Positions 14,208 to 38,823 of a stretch of 64,000 nt of DNA are shown in pieces. Under the pieces are notes generated by a model. It was not told where the DNA came from and ran no database searches. It was given only the letters and a program-made list of their open reading frames with translations. Made by a program: the position numbers and the translations under genes. Position 1 is the stretch's first letter, and each line of letters begins with the position of its first letter. The stretch comes from Rhodopirellula halodulae (GTDB lineage: Bacteria; Planctomycetota; Planctomycetia; Pirellulales; Pirellulaceae): positions 489,001 through 553,000 of the forward strand of contig NZ_JAJKFV010000029.1 of NCBI RefSeq assembly GCF_020966775.1. The letters run 5' to 3'.

Positions 14208-15077
14208 CTACATTGCATCGTCGACAAATTCGCCATCGGCACGGTTGCCCAGGTGAGCGAAAACGTCGGGGTCGATGCTTTCAGAAAGAAAGCGAATCGC
14301 CCCATCCGCAAAGCAGAATTGAGCCCCGCCTCGGTGTTCACTCGCGAATCCGCCAACCTGTTGTGCGGGTGGTTCGTCCATCGAGCGGCCGAATGGGTCG
14401 GAGGAACCACCGATCATGGTTCCTGTGTTTCGCAGCGACGCGCGGGTTCCCGATGCCCACCCGAGCGATTGGAGAGAAGGCAGGTGTTCGCCAATCAGGA
14501 TGGTGTGGCTGCTGCCATCGTAGATCTCGCCGTATGTCATCTCGCTGTTCAGAAACAGCAGACCATTGTTGTCCTCATCGATTTGAACCTCGGTTGAATG
14601 ATGACAGCCCGCGTAATTGGTTAGCCCCGCGGTTTCATCTTCGTTCTGACTGAATGGAAACGAAGGGCAGAGGAAGGTTGCAATCTGGTAAGAGCGGACT
14701 TTGGCGTTGTCGGCCGAGTAAACACTTTGGCTCGTGTCGAAATCATCGGCGGCACCCTGCTGCTCGATGTACGGAAGCAGTCGCACCAGAAAACTGATGT
14801 GCTCACCGACCGGTTCGCTGACGATGGGGCCGTCCGGGTTGGTGGTGCCCGCCGGCAAGTGCTCCCACGAGAATTCATAGTTGTGGGTGGCCAGTCCCAA
14901 CTGGGCGAGATTGTTGGAGCAGCTCATTCGCCGCGCCGCCTCGCGAGCGGCTTGGACCGCGGGAAGCAACAGTCCGACCAACACGCCGATGATGGCGATG
15001 ACGACGAGAAGCTCAACCAGCGTGAAAGCGCGTGGCTTTCTCGATGAATGGATGGAAACAACGTTGGGCGATGTCAT
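14208..15077 (-). CDS. DUF1559 prepilin-like protein
   Basis: The chosen ATG gives MTSPNVVSIHSSRKPRA followed by the type IV prepilin motif FTLVELLVVIAIIGVLVG with Glu at +5, so it should be cut by prepilin peptidase after Ala and packed into a pseudopilus or held in the membrane. PAVQAAREAARRMSCSNNL and the C-terminal FADGAIRFLSESID pattern identify DUF1559, a family greatly expanded in planctomycetes. The length is 289 residues. It sits 116 bases downstream of the GspK-like gene in the same direction and may be part of, or an addition to, that operon. In-frame sequence upstream of the ATG lacks coding character. Confidence 0.88.
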   Translation of the reverse strand: MTSPNVVSIHSSRKPRAFTLVELLVVIAIIGVLVGLLLPAVQAAREAARRMSCSNNLAQLGLATHNYEFSWEHLPAGTTNPDGPIVSEPVGEHISFLVRLLPYIEQQGAADDFDTSQSVYSADNAKVRSYQIATFLCPSFPFSQNEDETAGLTNYAGCHHSTEVQIDEDNNGLLFLNSEMTYGEIYDGSSHTILIGEHLPSLQSLGWASGTRASLRNTGTMIGGSSDPFGRSMDEPPAQQVGGFASEHRGGAQFCFADGAIRFLSESIDPDVFAHLGNRADGEFVDDAM

Positions 15078-15193
15078 GGCGGTGGCCTCGTGTGGAAGGT
15101 GGAGACAACGTGAAGGGCGGGGGAGAGTGATGGGGAACATGGTTTTGATGCATCGGGGTTGGCCGGCTCGCCGTGCCAATCGACCGAGGCGTC

Positions 15194-15655
15194 TCATTCC
15201 GGTGGTGTTTTGGTGGTGGGGAGTGTCCACGTGCGAGATCGTTGGATACGCCGTGAGGAACTCGCGTCGGGGGATCCAGCGATTGGTGATCCAAGAATGA
15301 CTGTGACTTGCAACGAAACAGCCGACTTGGATGAGTTGGGGGAGCCAGAGTCCGTTTCGGGAAAAATCGCGATCTGGATTTCCGCGTTGTCTTCCTTTTT
15401 CAATGCGTCGCTGACTATCCAGGTTTCGCCGGTGTATTCCGAGTTCGCACTCAGCGATTGGTGAGCTCGGATCAGCCCCGCTTCCAAAAGCCATTCGGCC
15501 TGTTCAACGCGACGTTCATGCTGTCCTTGGCGACGACTGGCCAAACTGCTTTTCAGCGATGTCATGACCAGCGACATCGCGATTCCAAGGCAAACCAAAA
15601 CGTAGACCAACGCGGTCCCGCGGCGGGTTGGGGTCTGTGGCGATTTCAGGTTCAT
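15194..15655 (-). CDS. GspK/PilX-like minor pseudopilin
   Basis: The N terminus has a short basic leader ending in RRG, then TALVYVLVCLGIAMSLVMTSL. This is a prepilin-type hydrophobic helix lacking the Glu at +5, which is the hallmark of GspK-type tip pseudopilins. The rest (153 residues in all) is a small globular region without recognised motifs, shorter than canonical GspK (about 320). It overlaps the upstream GspJ-like gene by ATGA. With the two preceding genes it would form an I-J-K tip complex; that assignment is inferred from N-terminal features and order. Confidence 0.7.
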   Translation of the reverse strand: MNLKSPQTPTRRGTALVYVLVCLGIAMSLVMTSLKSSLASRRQGQHERRVEQAEWLLEAGLIRAHQSLSANSEYTGETWIVSDALKKEDNAEIQIAIFPETDSGSPNSSKSAVSLQVTVILGSPIAGSPDASSSRRIQRSRTWTLPTTKTPPE

Positions 15656-16245
15656 GGCAGGACCTCAAATCGTGCGTATCGATTTAGCTCCACCTGCAGC
15701 AGCAAGTCGTTTCGCGGAATTGTGTCGGTGTTCCGAGGTGGCCGCACCGAGCCGTTGGAAGACTGATCCGTCGATGGTGCCGGATGGCGGCTGGTCAGCG
15801 GCGTGTTGCTGGAGCGTTGAATCTGCAACGTGATGGAGTTGGACATATCTGAACGAAGCCACTTCACCAACGATCCGGGGGCAACTTCGAACACGTCGGT
15901 TCGTTTCGTTCGCGTGCTGATTTGCTCGGTTCGCTGGATCAAGGAGTCTTTTGCTTCGTACAACACATTTCCCGAGTTCAGAGAAAGGGTGTTGCCCTGG
16001 ATCGAGGCATCCGCGGCGAAGCGGACGTCTTCACGAAACATTCGCGACAATCGTGACAAGTTGTTTTGATGGGAGGCTCGTGATTGCATCTGTTTGGACA
16101 ACTTCATGGATTGATGAATCCATCCGATGGAGATGGTGATCAGGGACGAGAGAACGGACATCACGATCAGCAATTCGACCAGCGAGTGCCCTTCGCGTTT
16201 TTCGCCGAAGGAAATGCGACGATGAATTCGAACACGAGTCCTCAT
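15652..16245 (-). CDS. GspJ-like minor pseudopilin
   Basis: From the ATG at 16245, which overlaps the preceding stop as ATGA, a basic leader ends in REG and is followed by HSLVELLIVMSVLSSLITISIG, a prepilin helix with Glu at +5. The mature part has an RLSRMFREDVRFAAD segment and a beta-rich C terminus, as in GspJ/PilW-type proteins. The product is 197 residues. Upstream in-frame sequence encodes an arginine-rich stretch read from the neighbour gene and is not part of the protein. The likely role is a pseudopilus tip subunit; assignment to J is tentative. Confidence 0.75.
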   Translation of the reverse strand: MRTRVRIHRRISFGEKREGHSLVELLIVMSVLSSLITISIGWIHQSMKLSKQMQSRASHQNNLSRLSRMFREDVRFAADASIQGNTLSLNSGNVLYEAKDSLIQRTEQISTRTKRTDVFEVAPGSLVKWLRSDMSNSITLQIQRSSNTPLTSRHPAPSTDQSSNGSVRPPRNTDTIPRNDLLLQVELNRYARFEVLP

Positions 16246-16706
16246 GGCGTTTCCTCCGTTTCCGAAACGGCTGCTTTCGCATCGTCGTTGTCGCTCGGCA
16301 ACGGTTGCTCGAAGGTCCAAGCCACCAATTCGACCGGGACGCCCGGGTGATCGCGATCCCAATTCAGGCTCAGTTCGATTCGTTGACCCAACGAGTCGCT
16401 CACCAGTTCTCCTGATAGCAGCGGATTGGGAAGCATGTCTCGCAACTCATCGGATGCTTGAAGCTGCGACAGTTGCGTCGGAAGTTCTTTCGTCGGCACC
16501 GTGGTGAGTCGCTCCATTTCGCCAGCCAATGCCCAGGTCGCGGTTCGTTGTTGATTTGAGTCCTTCCAAACCCGATGGATCCGAAACGTCAACGAGGTCA
16601 CGACTGACATCAACGCAATCAAGATGGAGGCTGCGACGACCAATTCAATCATCGTGAAGGCGGTGCGTCTATTCGTTCTCTGCTGTTGAAGCATGTTGGG
16701 TTTCAT
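16242..16706 (-). CDS. GspI/GspH-like minor pseudopilin
   Basis: The ATG at 16706 overlaps the stop of the third GspF-like gene (ATGA). The leader MKPNMLQQQRTNRRTA precedes FTMIELVVAASILIALMSVV, a class III signal with Glu at +5. The 154-residue product has a short soluble domain with an acidic tail (SDNDDAKAAVSETEETP). Small size and position before the J- and K-like genes point to GspI or GspH. It should be processed by a prepilin peptidase, not encoded in the window. Confidence 0.75.
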   Translation of the reverse strand: MKPNMLQQQRTNRRTAFTMIELVVAASILIALMSVVTSLTFRIHRVWKDSNQQRTATWALAGEMERLTTVPTKELPTQLSQLQASDELRDMLPNPLLSGELVSDSLGQRIELSLNWDRDHPGVPVELVAWTFEQPLPSDNDDAKAAVSETEETP

Positions 16707-17806
16707 GCGAGCCCCCGGACCAAGTTGATGAGCACGAGGAAGACTGCGAAGGCGGACCAGGCGACGACAATCGCCAGCAGCAGGAGGCTGGCCACGGAAA
16801 TCAGTCGCGTGAAGAAATGTTGACGCAAAGTCCGGCGGTTGAACCTGGCCTCCGCAAGCCACCTCAGCAGCCAGGCTTGGACCGCACTGGATCCCGCGAC
16901 GGACAGGGCTCTTGATTCGCGAGACGTGAGGATCTGCTCGTTGGCGAGCGTGATCCACGGGTCCGCACCTTGTTCAATCAAAGTGCAGGACGTGGCCAAT
17001 TGCCGACGCACCCTCGGGATGTGGTGGCACTTCGACAGGGTTTGCAAACCCGCGGTGATCGGGCGACCGGAGTCCACCACGATTGCCAACAATGAGAGGA
17101 GATTCACCGACGGCGGAACAAAACGCTCGTGCCATCGCATTGGATTGAATCGGTACGGTTGAGGTTCACGACTGAATAGAAGTCGCCCCACAATCACCAT
17201 CCCGAAGATGGCAATGCCGAGGATCAGCACCTCACCCGCTCGATTACTGACTGCGATTAAGGAACTTGTGACGGCGGGAAGTTCTAGCCCGAATTCCTCA
17301 AACATGCGTTCGAAGGTGGGCATGATAAAGATCAATAAGAACGACAGGATCATCCACGCGATCAAGAAACCAAGCATGACGCGAAAAAACTCTGATCGGG
17401 GGCTGCGCCAACCGGAGTCGGATGTTTCTGGTTCGAGCCCGGCATCTGAAAGCAACGCGTCGTAGGTTTGACTCAAGGTGCCCGTTTCGCTGGCGAGTCG
17501 AATGGCCATCAGGGCCGACGGCGGAAGGATTCGCGGTGTTTGTTCCAAGGCATCCGGGACAGGAATTCCGGTGTTCAGCAGAGTTGCTAGATGATTCATC
17601 CTGGCCGCCACCGGGCCTTTGAACTCAGCCGCCAACAGCTCCACCCAAGTCGCCGCCGATTCGCGTTTGACATGGGCGACCGATAACACGCGAACCAAAG
17701 AACGGTGGGGAACCGAAGAAAGTGCGAGCAGCCCGTCGGGGATTTGGTTTGACGAAGGAACGGCTGCGTCCATCTCGCTGTCGTGTTGGATGGGGCGTTG
17801 ATTCAT
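16703..17806 (-). CDS. GspF/PilC-like inner-membrane platform protein (third of three)
   Basis: The 367-residue protein is the most typical GspF of the set. Its N-terminal domain (FKGPVAARMNHLATLLNTGIPVPDAL, then RLASETGTLSQTYDALL) is a full T2SS_F helical bundle. It is followed by membrane segments with FIMPTFERMFEEFGLELPAVT, a second helical bundle (DSGRPITAGLQTL) and a final membrane segment. GspF anchors the assembly ATPase under the pseudopilus. The start at 17806 overlaps the previous gene by ATGA. Two other GspF-like genes lie directly upstream. No ATPase gene is nearby. Confidence 0.85.
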   Translation of the reverse strand: MNQRPIQHDSEMDAAVPSSNQIPDGLLALSSVPHRSLVRVLSVAHVKRESAATWVELLAAEFKGPVAARMNHLATLLNTGIPVPDALEQTPRILPPSALMAIRLASETGTLSQTYDALLSDAGLEPETSDSGWRSPRSEFFRVMLGFLIAWMILSFLLIFIMPTFERMFEEFGLELPAVTSSLIAVSNRAGEVLILGIAIFGMVIVGRLLFSREPQPYRFNPMRWHERFVPPSVNLLSLLAIVVDSGRPITAGLQTLSKCHHIPRVRRQLATSCTLIEQGADPWITLANEQILTSRESRALSVAGSSAVQAWLLRWLAEARFNRRTLRQHFFTRLISVASLLLLAIVVAWSAFAVFLVLINLVRGLA

Positions 17807-18984
17807 GTCAATCCGCTCACGAGTTGAACCAAAGGCATGAACAGAGCAGTCATGACCCATCCGGTGATGCCACCAATGAGGAGGACGACAAGCGGTGTGA
17901 GCCAGACGAGAAGGTCGCGGCGTTTGTGACGCTCTCGGTCTTCGTAAAGCTTGCCCACCTCGCGAAGCAAACTGGCTTGCTCCTCCGGCGATGGGCTCTG
18001 CAGTGCGCGAATCATCAAGTGCGATGGTTTGCCGCGAACATGGGTGATGCCGGACAACGGGGCACGACCGGATTTCAAGCTGGCGAGGCATTCCTGGCTG
18101 ACGGTTCGCATGAAGCGTGCTGGGCTGGATTCGCCCGCAATCCGATAGGCGTCTGCTTTACTCAATCCGGTTTGCAGCAACAGAGCGACGTGTTCGGCCC
18201 AGGAAGCCCAGGCCAAGCGAGTGGGTGTGAACAGTCGTTGCCCCCAACGAATCCACGGGGATGCTTTGCCGGCACGGTGGCTGAGAAGTCGGGCAGATGC
18301 CGCAATGACCACCAAGATGATGATGCCGAGCAGAAGCCAGGCACCATAGGTTTGCGTGAATCGAGAAACAGCGAAGACCGTGCGCGTCGGCAGCGGCAAC
18401 GCTAGCCCAAAATCGTCCATCATCTCTTCGAACGAAGGGACGAGGAACACACAGATCAACATCAAAATCGCGATGCTCGTGATCGACAATACAATGGGGT
18501 AGGCGAGCAAGACCCAAAAGCGATTTCGTGAAGGTCGTCGTGAGATCGAACTCTCCCAGCGACGGACAGAGTCTTCCAATTTGGAGCTGGTCGAAACCCA
18601 TTCCTCCGGCGATCCCTCGTTGTTCGTGGAAGCGGCAGGACGCGGGTCCTCCGGTGTCGCACCCGTCAATTCAGTTTGATCCGAAGTCTCCGCTTGCACT
18701 CTCGGCAAATCCAACAACGGACGGCAGATCGCCAACGCGTCCGCGTGCGAGAGAACATCGTTGGCGGTGACCGGTCGGTCGAACCAGCGACTCATCAACT
18801 CCATTTGTTTCGCGACGCTGCCAACGGAGTTTTGAGCCGACTGGTGCAGCTGCAAAGCAATCATCGATTTGCGTTGCAATAAATCGTCCAGTGCGTTTCG
18901 AATCTGTTCCACGGTCGCTGAACCTGTGTCAGGTTCCGGGGGAAGATCGAAGGTGTCTGGTGGGTTGCTGGGAAGCGAGCTCAT
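17803..18984 (-). CDS. GspF/PilC-like platform protein (second of three)
   Basis: The 393-residue protein keeps the GspF layout: an N-terminal helical region (residues 20-90) with only weak family resemblance, a Ser/Glu-rich linker, and a membrane segment followed by FLVPSFEEMMDDFGLALPLPTRT, the conserved P-x-F...LP loop. A second membrane segment, a C-terminal bundle (HVALLLQTGLSKADAYRIA) and a final membrane segment complete it. The start overlaps the preceding gene by ATGA (18981-18984). Divergence of its N-terminal bundle suggests it does not bind the ATPase in the same way as the third copy; this is inference. Confidence 0.8.
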   Translation of the reverse strand: MSSLPSNPPDTFDLPPEPDTGSATVEQIRNALDDLLQRKSMIALQLHQSAQNSVGSVAKQMELMSRWFDRPVTANDVLSHADALAICRPLLDLPRVQAETSDQTELTGATPEDPRPAASTNNEGSPEEWVSTSSKLEDSVRRWESSISRRPSRNRFWVLLAYPIVLSITSIAILMLICVFLVPSFEEMMDDFGLALPLPTRTVFAVSRFTQTYGAWLLLGIIILVVIAASARLLSHRAGKASPWIRWGQRLFTPTRLAWASWAEHVALLLQTGLSKADAYRIAGESSPARFMRTVSQECLASLKSGRAPLSGITHVRGKPSHLMIRALQSPSPEEQASLLREVGKLYEDRERHKRRDLLVWLTPLVVLLIGGITGWVMTALFMPLVQLVSGLT

Positions 18985-20096
18985 GCGCAGGTCTCCTCGA
19001 GAGACGACGCTTGTCCGGGCTGGCTCGTGGGATCAACGAATCGATCTGCAGCGATGGAATCCTTGGCAACATCCTTGACGACATTTTTGTGCAGCGGATC
19101 GAAGCGTTCCGACACAACCGGGGAGAACATTCGCGATGGTGGGTGCTGCGTGGGCAGGACACGCGTGGGCTGAGAGAGGTCCTCGATCAACGAGATCAAC
19201 GGGTGAAAAATTGCGAGGCTGTAGGCCAGCACGCCGGTGCCGCCGATCGCGGCGGTGAGCAGGAGCGGCAAAACGACTCGCAGCACATTGATCCGATTCG
19301 AAGCAGACGTTTGGAAATGGTTTGCCAAACGCATCAATGCTGGTTCGCCGACCGACTTGGCATGCCGGCCTCGCATGGTGTTTTCGATTTGAAGTCGCGT
19401 GCTTCGTTCGCTGCCGATGAGTTCACAGCTCAATCGAACGGCATCGTCCATGGGAACGCCTGATCGAGTCATCCAGGCAATCAAACGCATGGCCACCGAG
19501 GTGGCTTGGTCACGGATAAAAGCCGACCCACCAAGACGCCGAGCCCATCCCGAGACGCCACCCGTCACCCAAAGTCCAAGACAAACCAACACAAAGGCGA
19601 TGGGGGCGATGGTCAGCACCGTCGGCAGAACGGAGATGATTGGATCCAGCCGGGCGGTGTCAGGCGTTTCGGGCACCAATGCCATGTCGCCTCGCAACGC
19701 GTTGACGTTTGGTGCCACAAACATCAGGTAAAACGCGAGGCCCGCGTAGCCAAGAAATGCGAGGACAACCAAGTAGATCAGAGAACCCCAGAGGATTCGC
19801 GAGAGTCTTTGTTCTGACCGATCGTTGTGCGTCAGCCCGTCCAACACAATTTGCATGTTGCCACAACGAGAAAAAATTTCGCGGGCAACTCGATACCTCG
19901 CGGGCAATTGCGAGGCGGGAAGTTTGCGAAGCAGTTCGAGCTTCTCCAGCGTCAGCCTACCGCTGTGATGTCCGCCGCTTCCCAGATGAATCGGAATTTT
20001 GACCATGACGGCGGCTGCCAATCCGTCGTCGAAGACCGACCAGTCGATTGGCGGATCTTTGTCATGCCCATGGGGTTCTGTTTCACCAGCGTTCAC
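18981..20096 (-). CDS. GspF/PilC-like platform protein (first of three)
   Basis: A GTG start at 20096 overlaps the stop of the putative anti-sigma gene (GTGA) and gives 371 residues. A basic helical N-terminal region (LEKLELLRKLPASQLPARYRV) leads to a membrane segment, a periplasmic loop (FVAPNVNALRGDMALVPE), a second segment, and the bundle RLIAWMTRSGVPMDDAVRLSCELI characteristic of the second GspF domain. A further membrane segment and a polar tail of about 60 residues, absent from ordinary GspF, end the protein. It is the most divergent of the three copies. Its membrane topology is inferred from hydrophobicity only. Confidence 0.75.
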   Translation of the reverse strand: MNAGETEPHGHDKDPPIDWSVFDDGLAAAVMVKIPIHLGSGGHHSGRLTLEKLELLRKLPASQLPARYRVAREIFSRCGNMQIVLDGLTHNDRSEQRLSRILWGSLIYLVVLAFLGYAGLAFYLMFVAPNVNALRGDMALVPETPDTARLDPIISVLPTVLTIAPIAFVLVCLGLWVTGGVSGWARRLGGSAFIRDQATSVAMRLIAWMTRSGVPMDDAVRLSCELIGSERSTRLQIENTMRGRHAKSVGEPALMRLANHFQTSASNRINVLRVVLPLLLTAAIGGTGVLAYSLAIFHPLISLIEDLSQPTRVLPTQHPPSRMFSPVVSERFDPLHKNVVKDVAKDSIAADRFVDPTSQPGQASSLEETCA

Positions 20097-20491
20097 GGAG
20101 TCTTCTCCGTTTCGCCAGTCGCAAAACGGATCGAAGAGGTGGAGTTGGGACGTTGAGCTTCCATGATTTCCATCAACGCCCAATCCAGCGACTGATTGGT
20201 CATGGAAGAACGCATCACAGCTCGGTGTTCCACTTCTTCACTGGTCATCCGTGGCAGTGGTGCCATGGATTGCAGCGATTGACCGACCCAGACGAATGAT
20301 AACGTGGCCGCCAATCCCAAACCAATCATTCCCAGTAGGGGACCCGTTTGTTTGCGCTGTTGGGTTTGCTGACGGACTTTCTCCAAGACCCTGGGGCGCA
20401 GTTCATCCGATGGGCGAACATAGTTTCCCGCTCGCTCGATCCATTCCTCGATGGAACCATCCCCATGGGAATGTTGTTGCAAGTCATTCAT
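20093..20491 (-). CDS. Putative anti-sigma factor, single-pass membrane protein
   Basis: The 132-residue product has an N-terminal cytoplasmic part (IEEWIERAGNYVRPSDELRPRVLEKV), one membrane segment (GPLLGMIGLGLAATLSFVWVG) and a ~60-residue outer part. It starts inside the end of the ECF sigma gene (8-base overlap) with GGAGG nine bases before the ATG. Position, size and topology fit an anti-sigma factor holding the upstream ECF sigma factor at the membrane. No zinc-binding HxxxCxxC motif is present, so the family call rests on context. The next gene starts within its stop codon. Confidence 0.65.
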   Translation of the reverse strand: MNDLQQHSHGDGSIEEWIERAGNYVRPSDELRPRVLEKVRQQTQQRKQTGPLLGMIGLGLAATLSFVWVGQSLQSMAPLPRMTSEEVEHRAVMRSSMTNQSLDWALMEIMEAQRPNSTSSIRFATGETEKTP

Positions 20492-21059
20492 GGCTGGGCA
20501 CCTCCGCATCGAGGTCGATTCGCAGCAGATGGGTCAGCTTTTCCATGCCGTATCGGTAGCGGCTGGCAGAAGTGGACAGGGTGATCTCCAGGACGTCAGC
20601 AATTTCAGCAAAGGTCATCTGTTCCCAAATCTTCAACACGATGACTTCGCTTTGTTCCATGGGCAGCTTTCGCAAGGCTCGCCACACCGCACGGATCGTT
20701 TCTTCTTTTTCCAATTCGTCGACACGTCGCACGGTCAACAAATCAGTGAGATTCTCGACGATGTTCCAACGTGATTTTCGACGAGCGATGGCCAGCGATT
20801 CGTTGCGGACCATTCGCAGCATGTAGTTCCACGGCTGGTTGGTGTCGCGGACCATGCGAGGGCATTGGGCCACTTTGACCAGCACCGTTTGCACGGCGTC
20901 TTCCGCGTCATGTTGGTTGCGAGTGACCGTGGTTGCGAATCGAACCAAACGCGTCGACGTCAGGTCGATCAGTCCCGCGATGGCGTCGCCTCCCTGCGCG
21001 ACCATGTGGTCGAGGCAGCGAGAAACTCGATTCGGAAAGGGGGTGGAGTGGCTCATCAC
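20484..21059 (-). CDS. ECF-family RNA polymerase sigma factor
   Basis: The 191-residue protein has sigma region 2 (RLVRFATTVTRNQHDAEDAV) and region 4 (LPMEQSEVIVLKIWEQMTFA, then EIADVLEITLSTSASRYRYG) and lacks regions 1 and 3, as ECF factors do. It heads a chain of overlapping genes for a putative anti-sigma protein and a pseudopilus-type apparatus, so it probably controls that operon. A start one codon downstream is equally possible (MM). It diverges from the YtrA-type gene with 178 bases between the start codons. Confidence 0.92.
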   Translation of the reverse strand: MMSHSTPFPNRVSRCLDHMVAQGGDAIAGLIDLTSTRLVRFATTVTRNQHDAEDAVQTVLVKVAQCPRMVRDTNQPWNYMLRMVRNESLAIARRKSRWNIVENLTDLLTVRRVDELEKEETIRAVWRALRKLPMEQSEVIVLKIWEQMTFAEIADVLEITLSTSASRYRYGMEKLTHLLRIDLDAEVPSHE

Positions 21060-21185
21060 AGAGACGATGCGCGGAGCGGCGAGTTTTGTTTAACAAAGTC
21101 ACAGAAAGTGGTCGGAATTCTCATCGGCGGTCACCGAGGGCGGGTTCCAGGCCGCAGACCAATCCTGAGTATGAACAAAAAACGC

Positions 21186-21214
21186 TTGACCTGCTTCTTG
21201 AGCGGTTGTATTAA
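21186..21214 (+). promoter_or_regulatory. Sigma-70-type promoter for the YtrA-ABC operon
   Basis: TTGACC (21186-21191), a 17-base spacer and TATTAA (21209-21214) form a near-consensus promoter. Transcription would start near 21221, which rules out the ATG at 21214 and supports the GTG at 21238 as the real start of the regulator. Confidence 0.65.
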
Positions 21215-21237
21215 TGAATCAACACAAGGGGTCAGTT

Positions 21238-21633
21238 GTGCAGATTCATTTATCCGACGACGGCGTTCCGCTGTACCAACAAGTCGTGCAGCAGATTCAG
21301 CATCGCATCTTGTCCGGCCAGCTCGCCGGCGGTGCTGAGATGCCCGCCATTCGAACGTTGGCGGAGCGGTTGAGGGTCAATCCCAACACCATCGCGCGAG
21401 CCTATCGCGAATTGGAGCAAGCGGGATTGGTGGAAAAACGGCGAACACGGGGCACGTTTGTGACTTCGTCGCCCACCGCCATGTCATCGCAAAAGAAACG
21501 CGAGGCGATCGAGCCCGCGATTGATCAATTGATCGTCCTGGCCCGGGGGTTGGGCGTGGATGGCAAAGAATTGTCGCAGTGGGTGCTTCGCCGCGACGAA
21601 CACATGCAACGCCAACGGGGAGAGCAGTCATGA
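21238..21633 (+). CDS. GntR-family regulator, YtrA subfamily
   Basis: The GTG at 21238 is preferred. It is preceded by AAGGGG at 7 bases, lies just after the predicted transcription start, and yields VQIHLSDDGVPLYQQVV, the usual N terminus of YtrA-type proteins. The 131-residue product has the GntR winged helix (IRTLAERLRVNPNTIARAYR, ELEQAGLVEKRRTRGTFV) and the short helical C-terminal tail of this subfamily, in place of a large ligand domain. YtrA regulators repress adjacent ABC-transporter operons, and such an operon follows with an ATGA overlap. The effector is unknown. Confidence 0.92.
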   Translation: MQIHLSDDGVPLYQQVVQQIQHRILSGQLAGGAEMPAIRTLAERLRVNPNTIARAYRELEQAGLVEKRRTRGTFVTSSPTAMSSQKKREAIEPAIDQLIVLARGLGVDGKELSQWVLRRDEHMQRQRGEQS

Positions 21634-22616
21634 GTGAGACGCGAAACGATACGACGTCGCAGGCGGTGGTGGTGAAAGGGCTGACGCAGCGCTTTGGCGA
21701 GACGTTGGCCTTGGACGACGTTTCCTTGTCGATTCCACAAGGATCCGTGTTTGGATTGTTGGGGCTCAACGGTGCCGGAAAGACAACCTTGCTGCGTCAC
21801 TTGTTGGGTTTGCATCAGTCGCGAATTGGCGAGGTGAGCGTCTTGGGATGCAGCCCCATCAAGGACCGCGAGCAGGTGATGCGGCGGATCGGATACTTGT
21901 CGGAAGAAGACAGCTTGCCAACGTGGATGCGAGTTCGTGATTTGACTTCGTTTTGCCAGTCGATCTACCCACGATGGGACGAGGCTTACGCGAAAGAGTT
22001 GTGCGATTGGTTTGAGCTCTCACCGGATACCAAGTTGCGTTCACTGTCCAAGGGAGGACGAGCTCGCGCCGGTTTGATCGCCGCGATTGCCCATCGTCCC
22101 GATTTGTTGATCTTGGACGAACCCGGCAGTGGCTTGGATCCGATCGCTCGCGACGACATTTTGCAAGCGATCATTCGCACCGTCAGCGTGGAGGGACGCA
22201 CGGTGATCTTCAGCAGTCATTTGCTGGAGGAAGTCAGCCGGGTATGCGACGACGTGGCGATCGTTCATCGCGGACGTTTGATCGAATCGTTGCCGATCCG
22301 TGAGATCGATCAGCGATACGAAGAATGGATTCTGCGACGCACGGACTCGTCTGGCGAACAGGCTGCCTGCCCGGTTTCGGACGCGTTTGGATGGCATCAA
22401 GAAGATCGCGAATGGTCGATGGTGTTGCCCAAATCAAGTCATGCCCAATCGATTCGCTTGCCAGATCCATGGCAACGCATCGAGACACGGCACGTGACGT
22501 TGAAACGATTGTTCGAGGCTCGCGTGCGAACGCAACGGTCGTCTGGTCCTGACGCATTGGGATCCGGACAAGAGGGGCCTGAATCAGCCAGTGAATTATC
22601 GGAGTCGTTGTCATGA
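21630..22616 (+). CDS. ABC transporter ATP-binding protein
   Basis: The ATG overlaps the regulator's stop (ATGA). The 328-residue ATPase has Walker A GLNGAGKTT, a signature loop LSKGGRARAGL (degenerate compared with LSGGQ), Walker B LLILDEPGSGLDP and the switch HSHLLEE-like SSHLLEEV. A C-terminal extension of about 100 residues resembles those of drug or bacitracin-type exporters. It should energise the membrane protein encoded next. Substrate cannot be told from sequence. Confidence 0.93.
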   Translation: MSETRNDTTSQAVVVKGLTQRFGETLALDDVSLSIPQGSVFGLLGLNGAGKTTLLRHLLGLHQSRIGEVSVLGCSPIKDREQVMRRIGYLSEEDSLPTWMRVRDLTSFCQSIYPRWDEAYAKELCDWFELSPDTKLRSLSKGGRARAGLIAAIAHRPDLLILDEPGSGLDPIARDDILQAIIRTVSVEGRTVIFSSHLLEEVSRVCDDVAIVHRGRLIESLPIREIDQRYEEWILRRTDSSGEQAACPVSDAFGWHQEDREWSMVLPKSSHAQSIRLPDPWQRIETRHVTLKRLFEARVRTQRSSGPDALGSGQEGPESASELSESLS

Positions 22617-24421
22617 GTGCCGTGGCAACAGGACCGAGTTCCATCGGTGGTCAAGAAGCGATTCGCGGTGGCTTCACACAGGATTGCCAGGCCGCATTTC
22701 GGTTGCTGTGGGCGAGGTGGGCTGGCGTGGCGATCTCGTTGTGGACAGTTTCCGTCATGGGCGTGTTGTTGGTCGGCTTGATCCGGCAATTGTTCATCGG
22801 TGATTGGCTTTTCGCGTCCAATGCGTGCGTCCTGGTGATGATCGTCACCCAAGCACCGCTGTTACTTTGGTCCGTCTTTGCTGTCGATTGGTGGGGCCCA
22901 GACATCAATCGCAAGGCATCCGGATTTGACGCGTTCCTGCTTCGCAGTCCCATTCCGTCCTCGCGATTGATGGTGGTCGCCGTGCTGGCGCGGCATGTCG
23001 CGATCGTGATCTCGTTGATGATGTTTGCGATCTCCATCGAAATTTCGCAAACCAGCAATGAGGAGCATTGGTGGGGAATCTATCCGGCTCTGTTGGTTTC
23101 GCTGGGGACGGCGTCTTTGTTGGTGTTGGCTTTCTGCTGGCGACCTTTTGCATGGGCGGGAACACGGGTGCTGTCCTTGTTGGTGCTGATTCCACTGGTT
23201 TACGTGATCAGTGTCTGGCCATTCGCAGCAACCTCCCCGGGACATCCGCGATTCTTGGTTTGGGGATTCCTTCCGTGGCCCCTGTTGCTGCTTTGGGCCG
23301 CTGCACTCGCGTTGGTTTATCAATCACTCGAATTGGCGAGGTCCAACTCTTACGGCTTGGACGACCGAGGGACCTTGGTTGCCACGCTGCGCGGTTGGTC
23401 GAGCCGGATCGCTGACCGCGTTTTGTCGATCGGGGGCTCTGGTCAAGCGTTTGCCGAAGGGCGGGCGCTCCGCTGGTTTGAGTCTCGGCAAACCCGGTCC
23501 AGCCGCTGGTCCATGGTGGCTTGGATTGGCGTCCCATCGCTGGTGTTGCTCGGGCTACTGCCACTCAATGCTGCGTCCGTCGTTATCGCAGCTTTGATTG
23601 TGTTGACCTACACCGAGCTGTCGATTGCGGGTGGATGGAGCGAAATGCACGGGGCCAATCGAGGAGGGCAGGGCAGGGCGATGCCATTGTTGTTGGCCGT
23701 CAGTCCCGTTTCACGCGAACGATTGGCGGGCGTGAAGATCCAACAAACGCTTTGGCTGGTCTCGACCGCATCGGTGGTCACCTTTGGCGTCTTGGCCGTG
23801 TTCGCGGTGCCGCGTCAGTGGAACGTTTGGAAACATTGGGCGGAAAGCATCCACGTTGGGCCACCGGGCGACGCTGTTTCCACGGGAGTTGGCGTTTCGC
23901 TCGCGTTGGTCTTGTTCCTGTTTGTTTCGTTGGTCGGTCGTGGGCTAGCGATGTTGTGGTTGTCGTTGATGTCCAATCGCAAAGTGACTTATAGCGTCGT
24001 GATTGCCGGTTGTTTGCTTGTGATGCTGTTCACGGGAAGGTGGGTGAGCTGGTTCATCGCTCAAGAGGAATGGGAGGTCATGCTCTACGAACTGCGACAA
24101 GGCTTACAGCGAATCCCATTTTGGATGGGGGTCTTGCTGGTCATCAAATCGGTCGCCGTGATTAGTGCTGCGATTTTGGCGATCAGGCAACCCGGACGAT
24201 GCGGGTCGTGGGTGGCGAAAACGACGCTGGGCTGGCTTTTGTGTGTGACCGCGGCGTCGCTGGGATTGCTGTTTCTATTGCCCGCCGAAATTCATCTCAG
24301 TGAGACTTGGCCGCGATGGCGATTGGATTCATGGATGGTTTGGGCGGCAACGATGTTGATGTTGCCACTGGCAAGACTGTTGATTTTGCCTTGGGCCGTT
24401 GGGAGAGACATTCACCGTTGA
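22613..24421 (+). CDS. ABC transporter permease
   Basis: The 602-residue protein begins in an ATGA overlap with the ATPase gene. It has about twelve hydrophobic segments, with two at the start (about residues 30-85), a cluster at 110-230, and further groups at 300-345, 380-450 and 470-600. This is the size and pattern of ABC-2-like exporters fused as one long chain. The cytoplasmic middle segment between residues 240 and 295 is basic. The stop overlaps the end of the convergent epimerase gene by ten bases. The transported compound is unknown. Confidence 0.85.
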   Translation: MSAVATGPSSIGGQEAIRGGFTQDCQAAFRLLWARWAGVAISLWTVSVMGVLLVGLIRQLFIGDWLFASNACVLVMIVTQAPLLLWSVFAVDWWGPDINRKASGFDAFLLRSPIPSSRLMVVAVLARHVAIVISLMMFAISIEISQTSNEEHWWGIYPALLVSLGTASLLVLAFCWRPFAWAGTRVLSLLVLIPLVYVISVWPFAATSPGHPRFLVWGFLPWPLLLLWAAALALVYQSLELARSNSYGLDDRGTLVATLRGWSSRIADRVLSIGGSGQAFAEGRALRWFESRQTRSSRWSMVAWIGVPSLVLLGLLPLNAASVVIAALIVLTYTELSIAGGWSEMHGANRGGQGRAMPLLLAVSPVSRERLAGVKIQQTLWLVSTASVVTFGVLAVFAVPRQWNVWKHWAESIHVGPPGDAVSTGVGVSLALVLFLFVSLVGRGLAMLWLSLMSNRKVTYSVVIAGCLLVMLFTGRWVSWFIAQEEWEVMLYELRQGLQRIPFWMGVLLVIKSVAVISAAILAIRQPGRCGSWVAKTTLGWLLCVTAASLGLLFLLPAEIHLSETWPRWRLDSWMVWAATMLMLPLARLLILPWAVGRDIHR

Positions 24422-34685: not shown

Positions 34686-34759
34686 GGGCGTGTAGCTCAG
34701 TTGGTTAGAGCGCGTCGCTGATAACGACGAGGTCCCAGATTCGAGTTCTGGCACGCCCA
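34686..34759 (+). tRNA. tRNA-Ile (GAU)
   Basis: The 74-base cloverleaf has acceptor arms GGGCGTG and CACGCCC, a discriminator A, the anticodon stem CGTCG/CGACG with loop CTGATAA (anticodon GAT at 34720-34722), and a T arm with TTCGAGT. The CCA end is not encoded. In most bacteria this tRNA sits between 16S and 23S. Confidence 0.97.
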
Positions 34760-34839
34760 TTTGAGAATTGAGGTTGCGGCAAGCGGATCCCGGTTGATAC
34801 TGGAACCGACCCTTCAATCTTGAAGATCAAAACCCAAAC

Positions 34840-34912
<73 letters not shown>

Positions 34913-35721
34913 CTTGGTTTAAATCAGAAAGTGACTCAAGTCACACCTTGGTTTGAACCGAAGCTTGAAGGACATTCGCTTTCGGGTGAATGACTGGAAG
35001 CAAAACAGGATCGAGAGTCCTGGTTTTGGTTCTGGACACTTCAATCCGAAGCAATTCACGAAGGAATCAAACTTTCTTCAGAAATGCTTCAGATTGCGGT
35101 TGACCAGGACCGGCCGCTCGCTATCTTTCCTGTCCCGCCGCTGAGCAAGGCTCTGCGACACTCTTCAAAAGGAGTGGAACAGACTCATGTGCAGCGGCAA
35201 ACGAGTCGAAGTCAGCTTTGAAACTTTTTTTAAAATTCATCGCTTCTTCCACTTGACCCGAAGCTGGCTCATCGCTAACTTCCTCGCTCGCTCAAAAGCG
35301 ACCGGCTGACCTCCGACTCACTGAGTCAGAGATTGACCGGCTGTTTTTGGCAGCGTCTCTCGGGTCCTCGCCTAGCGAGCATCCGGGAACTTGATTTTTG
35401 AAAATTTGGTTGTTTGGTAGTTGGCATCTGAAAAGAGCACCATGCGGCAGATGTGAACGGGCCTTTTTCCGGGGTCCAGGAACATTTGTCAGTAGGGTAA
35501 TAAGTTCTTCGGAAGCGTTGTTGCAAGGTCGATTGTTTTGATCGGTTTTGTAGCGAATGATTCTGATTGGATTCTTGAGCGATTCAGTTGTTTTCCATCT
35601 GGAAAGTAGCTGAGTCACTGTGTGATATCGTTAACTAGATACTACCGGATTTTGCACTCGGGTGTGAGTGGCTTGCTTCGCTTTGCGGGGTTGGTCGCTT
35701 GGCTTTGAGTTCGGGATTTCG
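34913..35721 (+). other. Long spacer between tRNA-Ala and 23S rRNA
   Basis: These 809 bases carry no convincing protein gene: the short open frames lack coding character. Visible contents are a promoter-like site (35100-35127), a boxA-like CACTCTTCAAAA (35159-35170) 31 bases after it, a small hairpin with arms CACTC and GAGTG (35159-35175), and the 5' half of the 23S processing stalk at the end. The spacer is longer than usual for a tRNA-to-23S interval. Confidence 0.7.
35100..35127 (+). promoter_or_regulatory. Possible second promoter upstream of 23S rRNA
   Basis: TTGACC, a 16-base spacer and TATCTT, followed by a GC-rich discriminator region as at many rRNA promoters. A boxA-like element follows about 30 bases downstream. 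The evidence is pattern only. Confidence 0.33.

Positions 35722-35730
<9 letters not shown>
35707..35730 (+). other. 23S processing stalk, 5' half
   Basis: This segment is complementary to 38591-38614 at 21 of 24 positions, extending the mature terminal helix into the flanks. It is the expected RNase III processing stalk and shows that 23S is excised from a precursor containing both flanks. Confidence 0.8.
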
Positions 35731-38590
<2,860 letters not shown>

Positions 38591-38599
<9 letters not shown>

Positions 38600-38614
38600 C
38601 GATATCCCGCACTC
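38591..38614 (+). other. 23S processing stalk, 3' half
   Basis: It pairs with 35707-35730 around the 23S gene. The strand TTTGGCCACCGATATCCCGC mirrors the upstream GCGGGAT-like flank with three mismatches. Confidence 0.8.
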
Positions 38615-38673
38615 ATGCGGTCCAATCGGATCGGCTTCTGATATTGAACTTGTTCAACTACCAAACAACTTGG

Positions 38674-38703
38674 CTTCACGGCGGCGAAACATTCGTCGTG
38701 AAG
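38674..38703 (+). other. Hairpin between 23S and 5S rRNA
   Basis: The arms CTTCACGGCG and CGTCGTGAAG form a 10-bp stem with one G-U pair just before 5S. It is probably a processing signal separating the two rRNAs. Confidence 0.6.
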
Positions 38704-38707
38704 TCTT

Positions 38708-38815
38708 TCCGGCGATCATATCTCAAAGGTTATACCTGTTCCCATTCCGAACACAGTAGTCAAGCTTTGAGAGCCGATGATAGTGCCCACCAGCGTGAAA
38801 GTAGGTCTTGCCGGA
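38708..38815 (+). rRNA. 5S ribosomal RNA
   Basis: The terminal helix CCGGCGA/TTGCCGG closes a ~108-base RNA containing the conserved CCTGTTCCCATTCCGAACAC (loop B and helix III) and the GATGATAGTGCC...GTGAAAGTAGG block of helices IV and V. It lies about 105 bases after 23S. Confidence 0.94.
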
Positions 38816-38823
38816 TTTTTAAA

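What the first reader, a model, noticed from the sequence alone, without database searches (positions are those of the whole stretch)
14208..21059. Sigma-factor-led pseudopilus operon with three different GspF-like proteins and no ATPase or secretin
An ECF sigma factor, a one-TM putative anti-sigma factor, three consecutive and divergent GspF/PilC-like platform proteins, pseudopilins resembling I/H, J and K, and a DUF1559 prepilin form one chain. Known type II and type IV systems have one GspF, with GspE beside it. Three copies suggest either a hetero-oligomeric platform or several pilin-assembly machines sharing an ATPase encoded elsewhere. Control by a dedicated ECF pair suggests envelope-stress-linked assembly.
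Basis: partly seen in the sequence, partly recalled or inferred. Interest (0 to 1): 0.78.

Follow-up and report, generated by a model that had tools for sequence, protein, structure and literature searches.

The report
Triple-platform pseudopilus operon without its motor
A planctomycete operon appears to build a small pilus-like envelope structure from three different copies of a platform protein that other bacteria use as one, it seems to be switched on by its own sigma factor, and its lineage lacks the motor gene that related operons still carry.

Summary
Nine packed genes (sigma, putative anti-sigma, F1, F2, F3, I, J, K, DUF1559) lie at 21056-14208, minus strand, with no GspE or secretin among them. 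F1-F3 are GspF/PilC relatives by profile. The arrangement is conserved: 89 of 94 related loci have exactly three F reading frames; one clearly has a single F. F1 and F3 form positional clades, so the triplication is old; F1-F3 are under purifying selection. Sister operons (16 of 89) carry a GspE before F1; the window lies in a 62-operon clade with none, so the dedicated motor was probably lost long ago, not "only here". New: a conserved promoter, TARACAAA-N12-GCGCATC, 36 nt upstream of sigma; in 12 genomes where sigma lies elsewhere it precedes both sigma and F1, indicating a dedicated autoregulated ECF regulon. The channel YP motif is never in F3 and the partner acid never in F1 (0 of 89 each), favouring one hetero-oligomeric platform. 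Whether it borrows an ATPase or runs without one is unresolved. New variant of the type IV filament superfamily; my searches found no description.

The parts
21066..21092 (-). Conserved promoter-like motif TARACAAA-N12-GCGCATC, predicted target of the operon's own ECF sigma factor
   Evidence: 0 mismatches in window; 38 of 45 sigma-led GspE-less operons at <=2 mismatches; exact genome matches one per genome and at this operon in 11 of 17 genomes searched, no exact match in the other 6
20484..21056 (-). ECF sigma factor (ATG at 21056 or GTG at 21059)
   Evidence: Pfam Sigma70_r2 6e-9, Sigma70_r4_2 1.5e-10; 47-79% identical to 14 orthologs
20093..20491 (-). Putative one-TM anti-sigma factor
   Evidence: No Pfam or NCBIfam match; position after sigma conserved; function inferred
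18981..20096 (-). F1, GspF/PilC-like platform protein, most divergent (GTG start)
   Evidence: T2SSF 23.2 bits, below cut-off; family profile to PilC 3jc8 E 2.4e-34; AF2 mean pLDDT 81.9; Foldseek gives nothing at E <= 0.001
17803..18984 (-). F2, GspF/PilC-like platform protein
   Evidence: T2SSF 3.6e-11; profile to PilC E 5.7e-56; AF2 mean pLDDT 87.0, Foldseek best match PilC 3jc8 E 3.3e-4
16703..17806 (-). F3, GspF/PilC-like platform protein with two T2SSF stretches
   Evidence: T2SSF 7.2e-22; profile to PilC E 1e-34; 99% identical to a Rhodopirellula sp. JC740 protein
16242..16706 (-). Minor pseudopilin, I/H-like
   Evidence: N_methyl E 0.007, sub-threshold; position conserved
15652..16245 (-). 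Minor pseudopilin, J-like
   Evidence: N_methyl E 8e-4, sub-threshold; position conserved
15194..15655 (-). Minor pseudopilin, short K-like
   Evidence: GspK NF037980 E 1.2e-6, sub-threshold; position conserved
14208..15077 (-). DUF1559 prepilin, probable main subunit (start 15077, or 15197)
   Evidence: PF07596 5.2e-60, N_methyl 2.7e-7, H-X9-DG 1.1e-6

Best explanation
This is one machine of the type IV filament superfamily, encoded by one autoregulated ECF-sigma operon. I-J-K and a DUF1559 prepilin are assembled in the inner membrane on a hetero-oligomeric platform made of F1, F2 and F3, most likely one of each, by analogy with the GspF homotrimer. The ancestor had its own GspE just before F1. 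The window's lineage lost it but kept all three platform proteins under selection. The product is inferred to be a short membrane-anchored endopilus or tip complex rather than a long filament. Shown: gene content, order, conservation, old triplication (F1 and F3), purifying selection, promoter-like motif, GspE in sister operons. Inferred: sigma binding to the motif, F1:F2:F3 stoichiometry, product, energy source, and loss rather than gain of GspE.
For: Order and copy number: 89 of 94 loci have exactly three F reading frames. F1 of GspE-less and GspE-bearing operons lies on one side of a branch (29 rows, SH-aLRT 100), F3 likewise (32 rows, 99). dN/dS in six overlapping GspE-less pairs is 0.10-0.28 for F1, 0.13-0.18 for F2, 0.10-0.18 for F3. 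GspE precedes F1 in 16 of 89 loci; the window's 62-row clade (SH-aLRT 100) has none. The TM1 YP motif is in F1 of 36, F2 of 83 and F3 of 0 of 89; the TM3 acid is in F1 of 0, F2 of 7 and F3 of 4 of 89. GspF/PulF is supported as a trimer in PMC10790770 (abstract and three results sections seen). The motif lies upstream of sigma, and upstream of both sigma and F1 in 12 of 12 genomes where they are apart; those 12 had been picked for the F1 motif.
Against: F2 is not resolved as one clade across operon types, and F1 and F2 of the divergent own-genome operon do not group with the others (quick tree, SH-aLRT only). Inter-protein covariation of TM1 and TM3 gave no signal once gappy rows were removed. 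One locus (L208) has a single F. The trees are midpoint-rooted. No complex was modelled and no co-transcription shown. Three of 45 sigma-led GspE-less operons lack the motif within 3 mismatches, and two of the weaker matches lie 149 and 181 nt upstream.
Confidence: 0.68

Rival explanations
1. The operon has no motor of its own but borrows an assembly ATPase (PilB/GspE type) encoded elsewhere, and builds a normal ATP-driven endopilus.
For: The own genome has 13 GspE-family matches, two of them in the same clade as the operon motors of relatives (C29:775k and C4:240k). G025, a carrier of the GspE-less operon, has a GspE of that clade with no F detected beside it (L151). The 11 GspE-less operons outside the 62-row clade keep the F1 YP motif in 10 and the F1 tip glycines in 11, as if still docking a motor.
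Against: Motif erosion in the window's clade: F1 YP 12 of 62, F1 tip glycines 6 of 62, F2 tip 0 of 62, against 14, 14 and 9 of 16 in GspE-bearing operons. G035 carries the operon but none of its six listed GspE matches is of the short type (open frames 522-636 aa). The erosion is largely one phylogenetic event and the independent-pairs test cannot reach significance, so borrowing is not excluded; F3 keeps tip glycines in 25 of 62 and could dock alone.
Confidence: 0.4
2. Three F genes serve three separate pilin-assembly machines.
For: DUF1559 prepilins are numerous in planctomycetes: 68 paralogs in P. limnophila (PMC10632474, passage) and 74 in R. baltica (PMC2754498, passage).
Against: In 89 of 94 loci the three F genes share one operon with one I-J-K-type set and keep their order, with positional ancestry of F1 and F3. 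YP is missing in F3 and the acid in F1 in 89 of 89 loci.
Confidence: 0.06
3. The platform and pseudopilins are no longer an assembly machine but an envelope sensor that feeds back on the anti-sigma factor.
For: Dedicated sigma control, with the only exact promoter copy at this operon in 11 of 17 genomes; loss of motor and erosion of coupling motifs.
Against: Sigma lies away from the operon in 12 of 12 genomes searched for it, and the prepilin genes are retained.
Confidence: 0.12
4. The operon is a decaying relict of a GspE-driven system.
For: Absence of GspE and erosion of channel and tip motifs; F1 is below the Pfam cut-off.
Against: dN/dS 0.10-0.28 for F1-F3 in six pairs; three F reading frames in each of the 62 operons of the clade.
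Confidence: 0.03

Closest known systems
Type II secretion system core (GspE-F-G-H-I-J-K)
   Same: GspF-like platform, I/J/K-like minor pseudopilins, prepilin main subunit
   Different: Three F genes; no secretin and no GspC/L/M match among the nine genes; GspE absent here though present in sister operons; sigma/anti-sigma led; DUF1559 in the place of GspG
Tad pilus (TadA-TadB-TadC)
   Same: More than one platform gene working as one platform
   Different: TadB and TadC are fission products with one T2SSF domain each (PMC6668835, passages); here three longer paralogs that match PilC over most of its length
Planctomycete PilB-PilT-PilC type IV pilus cluster (own genome C10:244-251k; a like cluster in G133, taken to be P. 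limnophila)
   Same: PilC/GspF with pilin-like genes beside it
   Different: One F with its own ATPases
GspE-bearing triple-F operons of family f22 (L103-L105, L107, L110, L118; called Gimesia-like here from recall, not from a call)
   Same: Same order including sigma and I-J-K-DUF1559
   Different: A 404-416 aa GspE (530-aa frame in L107) before F1; more canonical F proteins; promoter motif not found (0 of 6)

Membership tests
Type IV filament superfamily (broad) | GspF/PilC-type platform protein | tested here: met
Type IV filament superfamily (broad) | Class III prepilins | tested here: met
   DUF1559 protein passes the N_methyl cut-off; I and J are sub-threshold
Type IV filament superfamily (broad) | Dedicated assembly ATPase | tested here: not met
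   No GspE hit over 100 bits in the fetched stretch of 73 of 89 loci, window included (profile from six own-genome ATPases); present in 16 sister operons. Genome-wide ATPases exist
Type II secretion system | Secretin GspD with the operon | tested here: not met
   Own-genome secretin matches lie on C4, C14, C16 and C29:2.47M, none near C29:503-510k
Type II secretion system | GspC/L/M inner-membrane assembly proteins | tested here: not met
   No such match in the nine proteins; not searched genome-wide
Tad pilus | Split platform proteins, one T2SSF domain each, with TadA | tested here: not met
   F3 has two T2SSF stretches; F1-F3 profiles match most of PilC
ECF sigma factor | Sigma regions 2 and 4 | tested here: met
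ECF sigma factor | Autoregulated promoter | tested here: inconclusive
   Conserved motif upstream of sigma and, where split, of F1; binding and transcription not tested
Anti-sigma factor | Known anti-sigma domain | tested here: not met
   No Pfam or NCBIfam match; role inferred from position
Verru_Chthon pseudopilin cassette | TIGR02599 / TIGR02596 matches over cut-off | tested here: not met
   17.8 bits against 256.5 (I) and 28.2 against 70 (DUF1559)

The most novel reading that the evidence does not exclude
An ATPase-independent type IV filament machine: an obligate F1:F2:F3 heterotrimeric platform that lost its GspE long ago, yet has been kept across many planctomycete genera under a dedicated sigma factor, assembling an I-J-K-DUF1559 complex by pilin self-assembly or ion motive force.
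Probability: 0.3. Interest if true: 0.85.

Novelty: new variant of a known kind. Interest (0 to 1): 0.64.

Why it matters
How GspF/PilC works with its ATPase, and its oligomeric state, are still debated (PMC10790770). A natural family with three specialised copies, both with and without the motor gene, makes both questions testable by gene removal. It also offers a defined ECF regulon and a home for one DUF1559 prepilin, a family of dozens of paralogs in planctomycetes described as of unknown function (PMC10632474, passage).

Tried and rejected
Inter-protein covariation of F1/F2/F3 first showed a strong F1-TM3 to F2-TM1 signal. It vanished when eight rows gappy in a TM segment were dropped, among them L203, whose F2 lacks TM1: no support either way.

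Link between GspE absence and motif loss: the counts differ, but only 4 independent pairs exist on supported branches (6 on all branches), too few for the sign test to reach 0.05; part of that output was cut. The TM3 acid is also absent from 10 of 10 GspE-bearing operons outside family f22, so its loss is not tied to GspE loss.

Foldseek with the F1 model found nothing at E <= 0.001; the F2 model found PilC. The Plim_0410-0401 secretion-related locus of P. limnophila (PMC10632474, section 9) was considered: in genome G133, identified as P. limnophila only by my recall of its chromosome length, the region expected from the locus numbers holds a PilB-PilT-PilB-PilC-like cluster, not three F genes; no locus tags were seen. 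Plasmid records gave only two DUF1559 fragments. The dN/dS figures use longest reading frames, some over-extended at the start; K in L068/L075 (0.56) is unreliable for that reason, and pseudopilin genes reach 0.42 elsewhere. The sigma searches of class and phylum scored only 22-28 candidates per genome, often about half, so their tallies (28 of 148, 5 of 118) are lower bounds. In the GspE tree three rows sit on a very long branch and are probably wrong reading frames picked by my script. Twelve fetched loci without any F were dropped before the F counts.
Full report
WHAT IS THERE. The nine genes lie on the minus strand: sigma 21056-20484, anti 20491-20093, F1 20096-18981, F2 18984-17803, F3 17806-16703, I 16706-16242, J 16245-15652, K 15655-15194, DUF1559 15077 (or 15197)-14208. 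Stops and starts overlap from sigma through K. An rpmG-like gene (about 13988-13826, named from its sequence) and a recJ-like gene (13787-11988, likewise) follow on the same strand. A GntR-like regulator and ABC-transporter-like genes (21214-24421) diverge upstream; these neighbours are kept in close relatives. F3 is 99% identical to a protein of Rhodopirellula sp. JC740.

FAMILIES. F2 and F3 pass the T2SSF cut-off; F1 is just under it. Profiles built from F1, F2 and F3 match PilC of entry 3jc8 along most of its length; the F1 and F2 profiles include relatives that still have GspE. AlphaFold2 models of F1 and F2 have mean pLDDT 81.9 and 87.0. F2 finds PilC and the OutF/EpsF/PilC cytoplasmic domains, only the first at E <= 0.001; F1 finds nothing significant.

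CONSERVATION. Ten of the 12 other genomes of the genus searched have the operon, one of them cut by a contig end. Of 247 genomes in the order, 96 have an F3-profile match at E <= 1e-45. I fetched 60 further loci from that list, mostly the stronger matches; a number of listed places were left unfetched, so the frequencies below describe the loci seen, not the order. I annotated 107 loci. Twelve had no F (11 of these were fetched for a sigma match, one for a GspE match), and L081 is an ordinary E-E-F locus, leaving 94. Of these, 89 have exactly three F reading frames. The other five are L204 (three F, overlapping labels), L087, L149 and L210 (an F split in pieces) and L208 (one F only, 5.3 kb of upstream room). 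In the 89: sigma without GspE 45, neither 28, GspE without sigma 10, both 6. None of the 73 GspE-less loci has a GspE hit over 100 bits anywhere in the fetched stretch. Five of them have under 1.5 kb upstream of F1 (L086, L159, L177, L180, L194). Some genomes give two loci.

HISTORY. In a tree of 101 F proteins (quick method), F1 of GspE-less and GspE-bearing operons is one side of a branch (29 rows, SH-aLRT 100), as is F3 (32 rows, 99, including a third type found in the own genome). F2 of the main GspE-less group is one side (20 rows, 100), but F2 as a whole is not resolved. In the concatenated tree the window sits in a 62-row clade (SH-aLRT 100) with no GspE; the other 27 rows hold 16 with and 11 without. 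GspE status needs 6 changes on the tree, at least 4 on supported branches. Single-F loci in the own genome and sister operons carry GspE next to F in most cases, so loss is the simpler reading, but the tree is rooted only at the midpoint. Two genomes (G042, G059) carry both a GspE-less operon and a GspE-bearing one. The own genome carries a second, divergent GspE-F-F-F operon (L093).

THE MOTOR. The own genome has 13 GspE-family matches; the nearest on the operon's contig is about 266 kb away. The operon GspE of relatives falls in a clade of 12 rows (SH-aLRT 100) that also holds two own-genome proteins and one from G025. In G025 no F was detected beside that GspE (L151), which would suit a lent motor. 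G035 has the GspE-less operon but none of its six listed matches is of the short type. So a borrowed motor, if used, is not always of that clade.

RESIDUES. In PulF a tyrosine next to a proline in TM1 and a glutamate next to a proline in TM3 of neighbouring subunits line a channel, and the trimer fits a GspE hexamer in models (PMC10790770, sections read). Here the YP motif is in F1 of 36, F2 of 83 and F3 of 0 of 89. The TM3 acid is in F1 of 0, F2 of 7 and F3 of 4 of 89. F1 never has the acid and F3 never has YP, so neither supplies both halves, which fits a mixed platform. The Cyto1 tip glycines of F1 are kept in 14 of 16 GspE-bearing and 17 of 73 GspE-less operons, those of F2 in 9 of 16 and 2 of 73. 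In the 62-row clade: F1 YP 12, F2 YP 59, F1 tip 6, F2 tip 0, F3 tip 25. This association rests mostly on one event, cannot reach significance in the independent-pairs test, and alignment in the eroded regions is uncertain.

SELECTION. In six GspE-less pairs, which share some members, dN/dS is 0.10-0.28 for F1, 0.13-0.18 for F2 and 0.10-0.18 for F3. These are not dying genes.

REGULATION. The motif TARACAAA-N12-GCGCATC starts 36 nt upstream of the sigma ATG, exact in the window at 21066-21092. In 45 sigma-led GspE-less operons the best upstream match has 0 mismatches in 23, 1 in 9, 2 in 6, 3 in 4, and none within 3 in 3. It is not found upstream of 16 of 16 GspE-bearing operons. Of 445 random stretches from the same loci, 437 have no match. 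Genome-wide in 17 genomes, exact matches occur once each in 11, each at this operon; two more have a one-mismatch match at it; G042, whose operon copy has 2 mismatches, and G001, G008 and G080 have none; the other one-mismatch matches are no more than the reversed-pattern control gives. Of 28 operons lacking both sigma and GspE, 12 have the motif upstream of F1 at <=2 mismatches, one at 3, and 15 have none. I searched those 12 genomes: sigma is elsewhere in 12 of 12, in some about 45-57 kb away, and it too carries the motif (0 mismatches in 10, 1 in 2). The 12 were chosen for the F1 motif, but the sigma result is independent of that choice. I read this as an ECF sigma factor that drives its own gene and the pseudopilus genes.

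LITERATURE. Searches for planctomycetes with DUF1559 (four papers, passages of all four seen), GspF and pseudopilin (27: none), type II secretion and pili (67: 193 papers, only the listing of 15 seen), GspE and GspF (73: none), DUF1559 with pilin (74: one), and ECF with type II secretion (98: none) showed no description of this operon. PMC11300603 and PMC6668835 were seen in passages. The library holds open-licence papers only.

Noticed in passing
G000:C4:240-247k (L093:7158-13862): A second, divergent operon in the same genome: GspE, F, a 263-aa F-like protein, F, weak I, J, DUF1559. A counterpart is in G002 (L152).
   Followed up: partly
G000:C1:2042-4567 (L097:2024-4567): Two adjacent GspE/PilT-like proteins with no F hit in the 9-kb stretch; no Walker A motif is seen in the part of the 446-aa one that was printed.
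   Followed up: no
L092:7646-10029 (G000:C29:775-778k): A GspE 54% identical to the operon GspE of G189 stands beside a single F.
   Followed up: partly
L151:7497-8714 (G025): A GspE of the operon-motor clade with no F hit in its 16-kb locus, in a genome that carries the GspE-less operon.
   Followed up: partly
window 34686-38816: tRNA-Ile, tRNA-Ala, 23S and 5S are found, but no 16S rRNA match was listed for the window; an unlinked 16S is recalled as known in planctomycetes.
   Followed up: no
L068, L070, L075 just upstream of the sigma promoter: Arrays of short CGAGCA/GAGCG-type repeats lie directly upstream of the promoter motif.
   Followed up: no
G022:C92:26180-26206: A one-mismatch promoter motif between the anti-sigma gene and F1 although sigma leads the operon, so possibly an internal promoter.
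   Followed up: no
window 16659-16661 and 15027-15029: The I-like and DUF1559 prepilins have alanine, not glycine, before the predicted cleavage site.
   Followed up: no
L208: The only related locus seen with a single F (527 aa) before I-J-K-DUF1559-DUF1559.
   Followed up: partly
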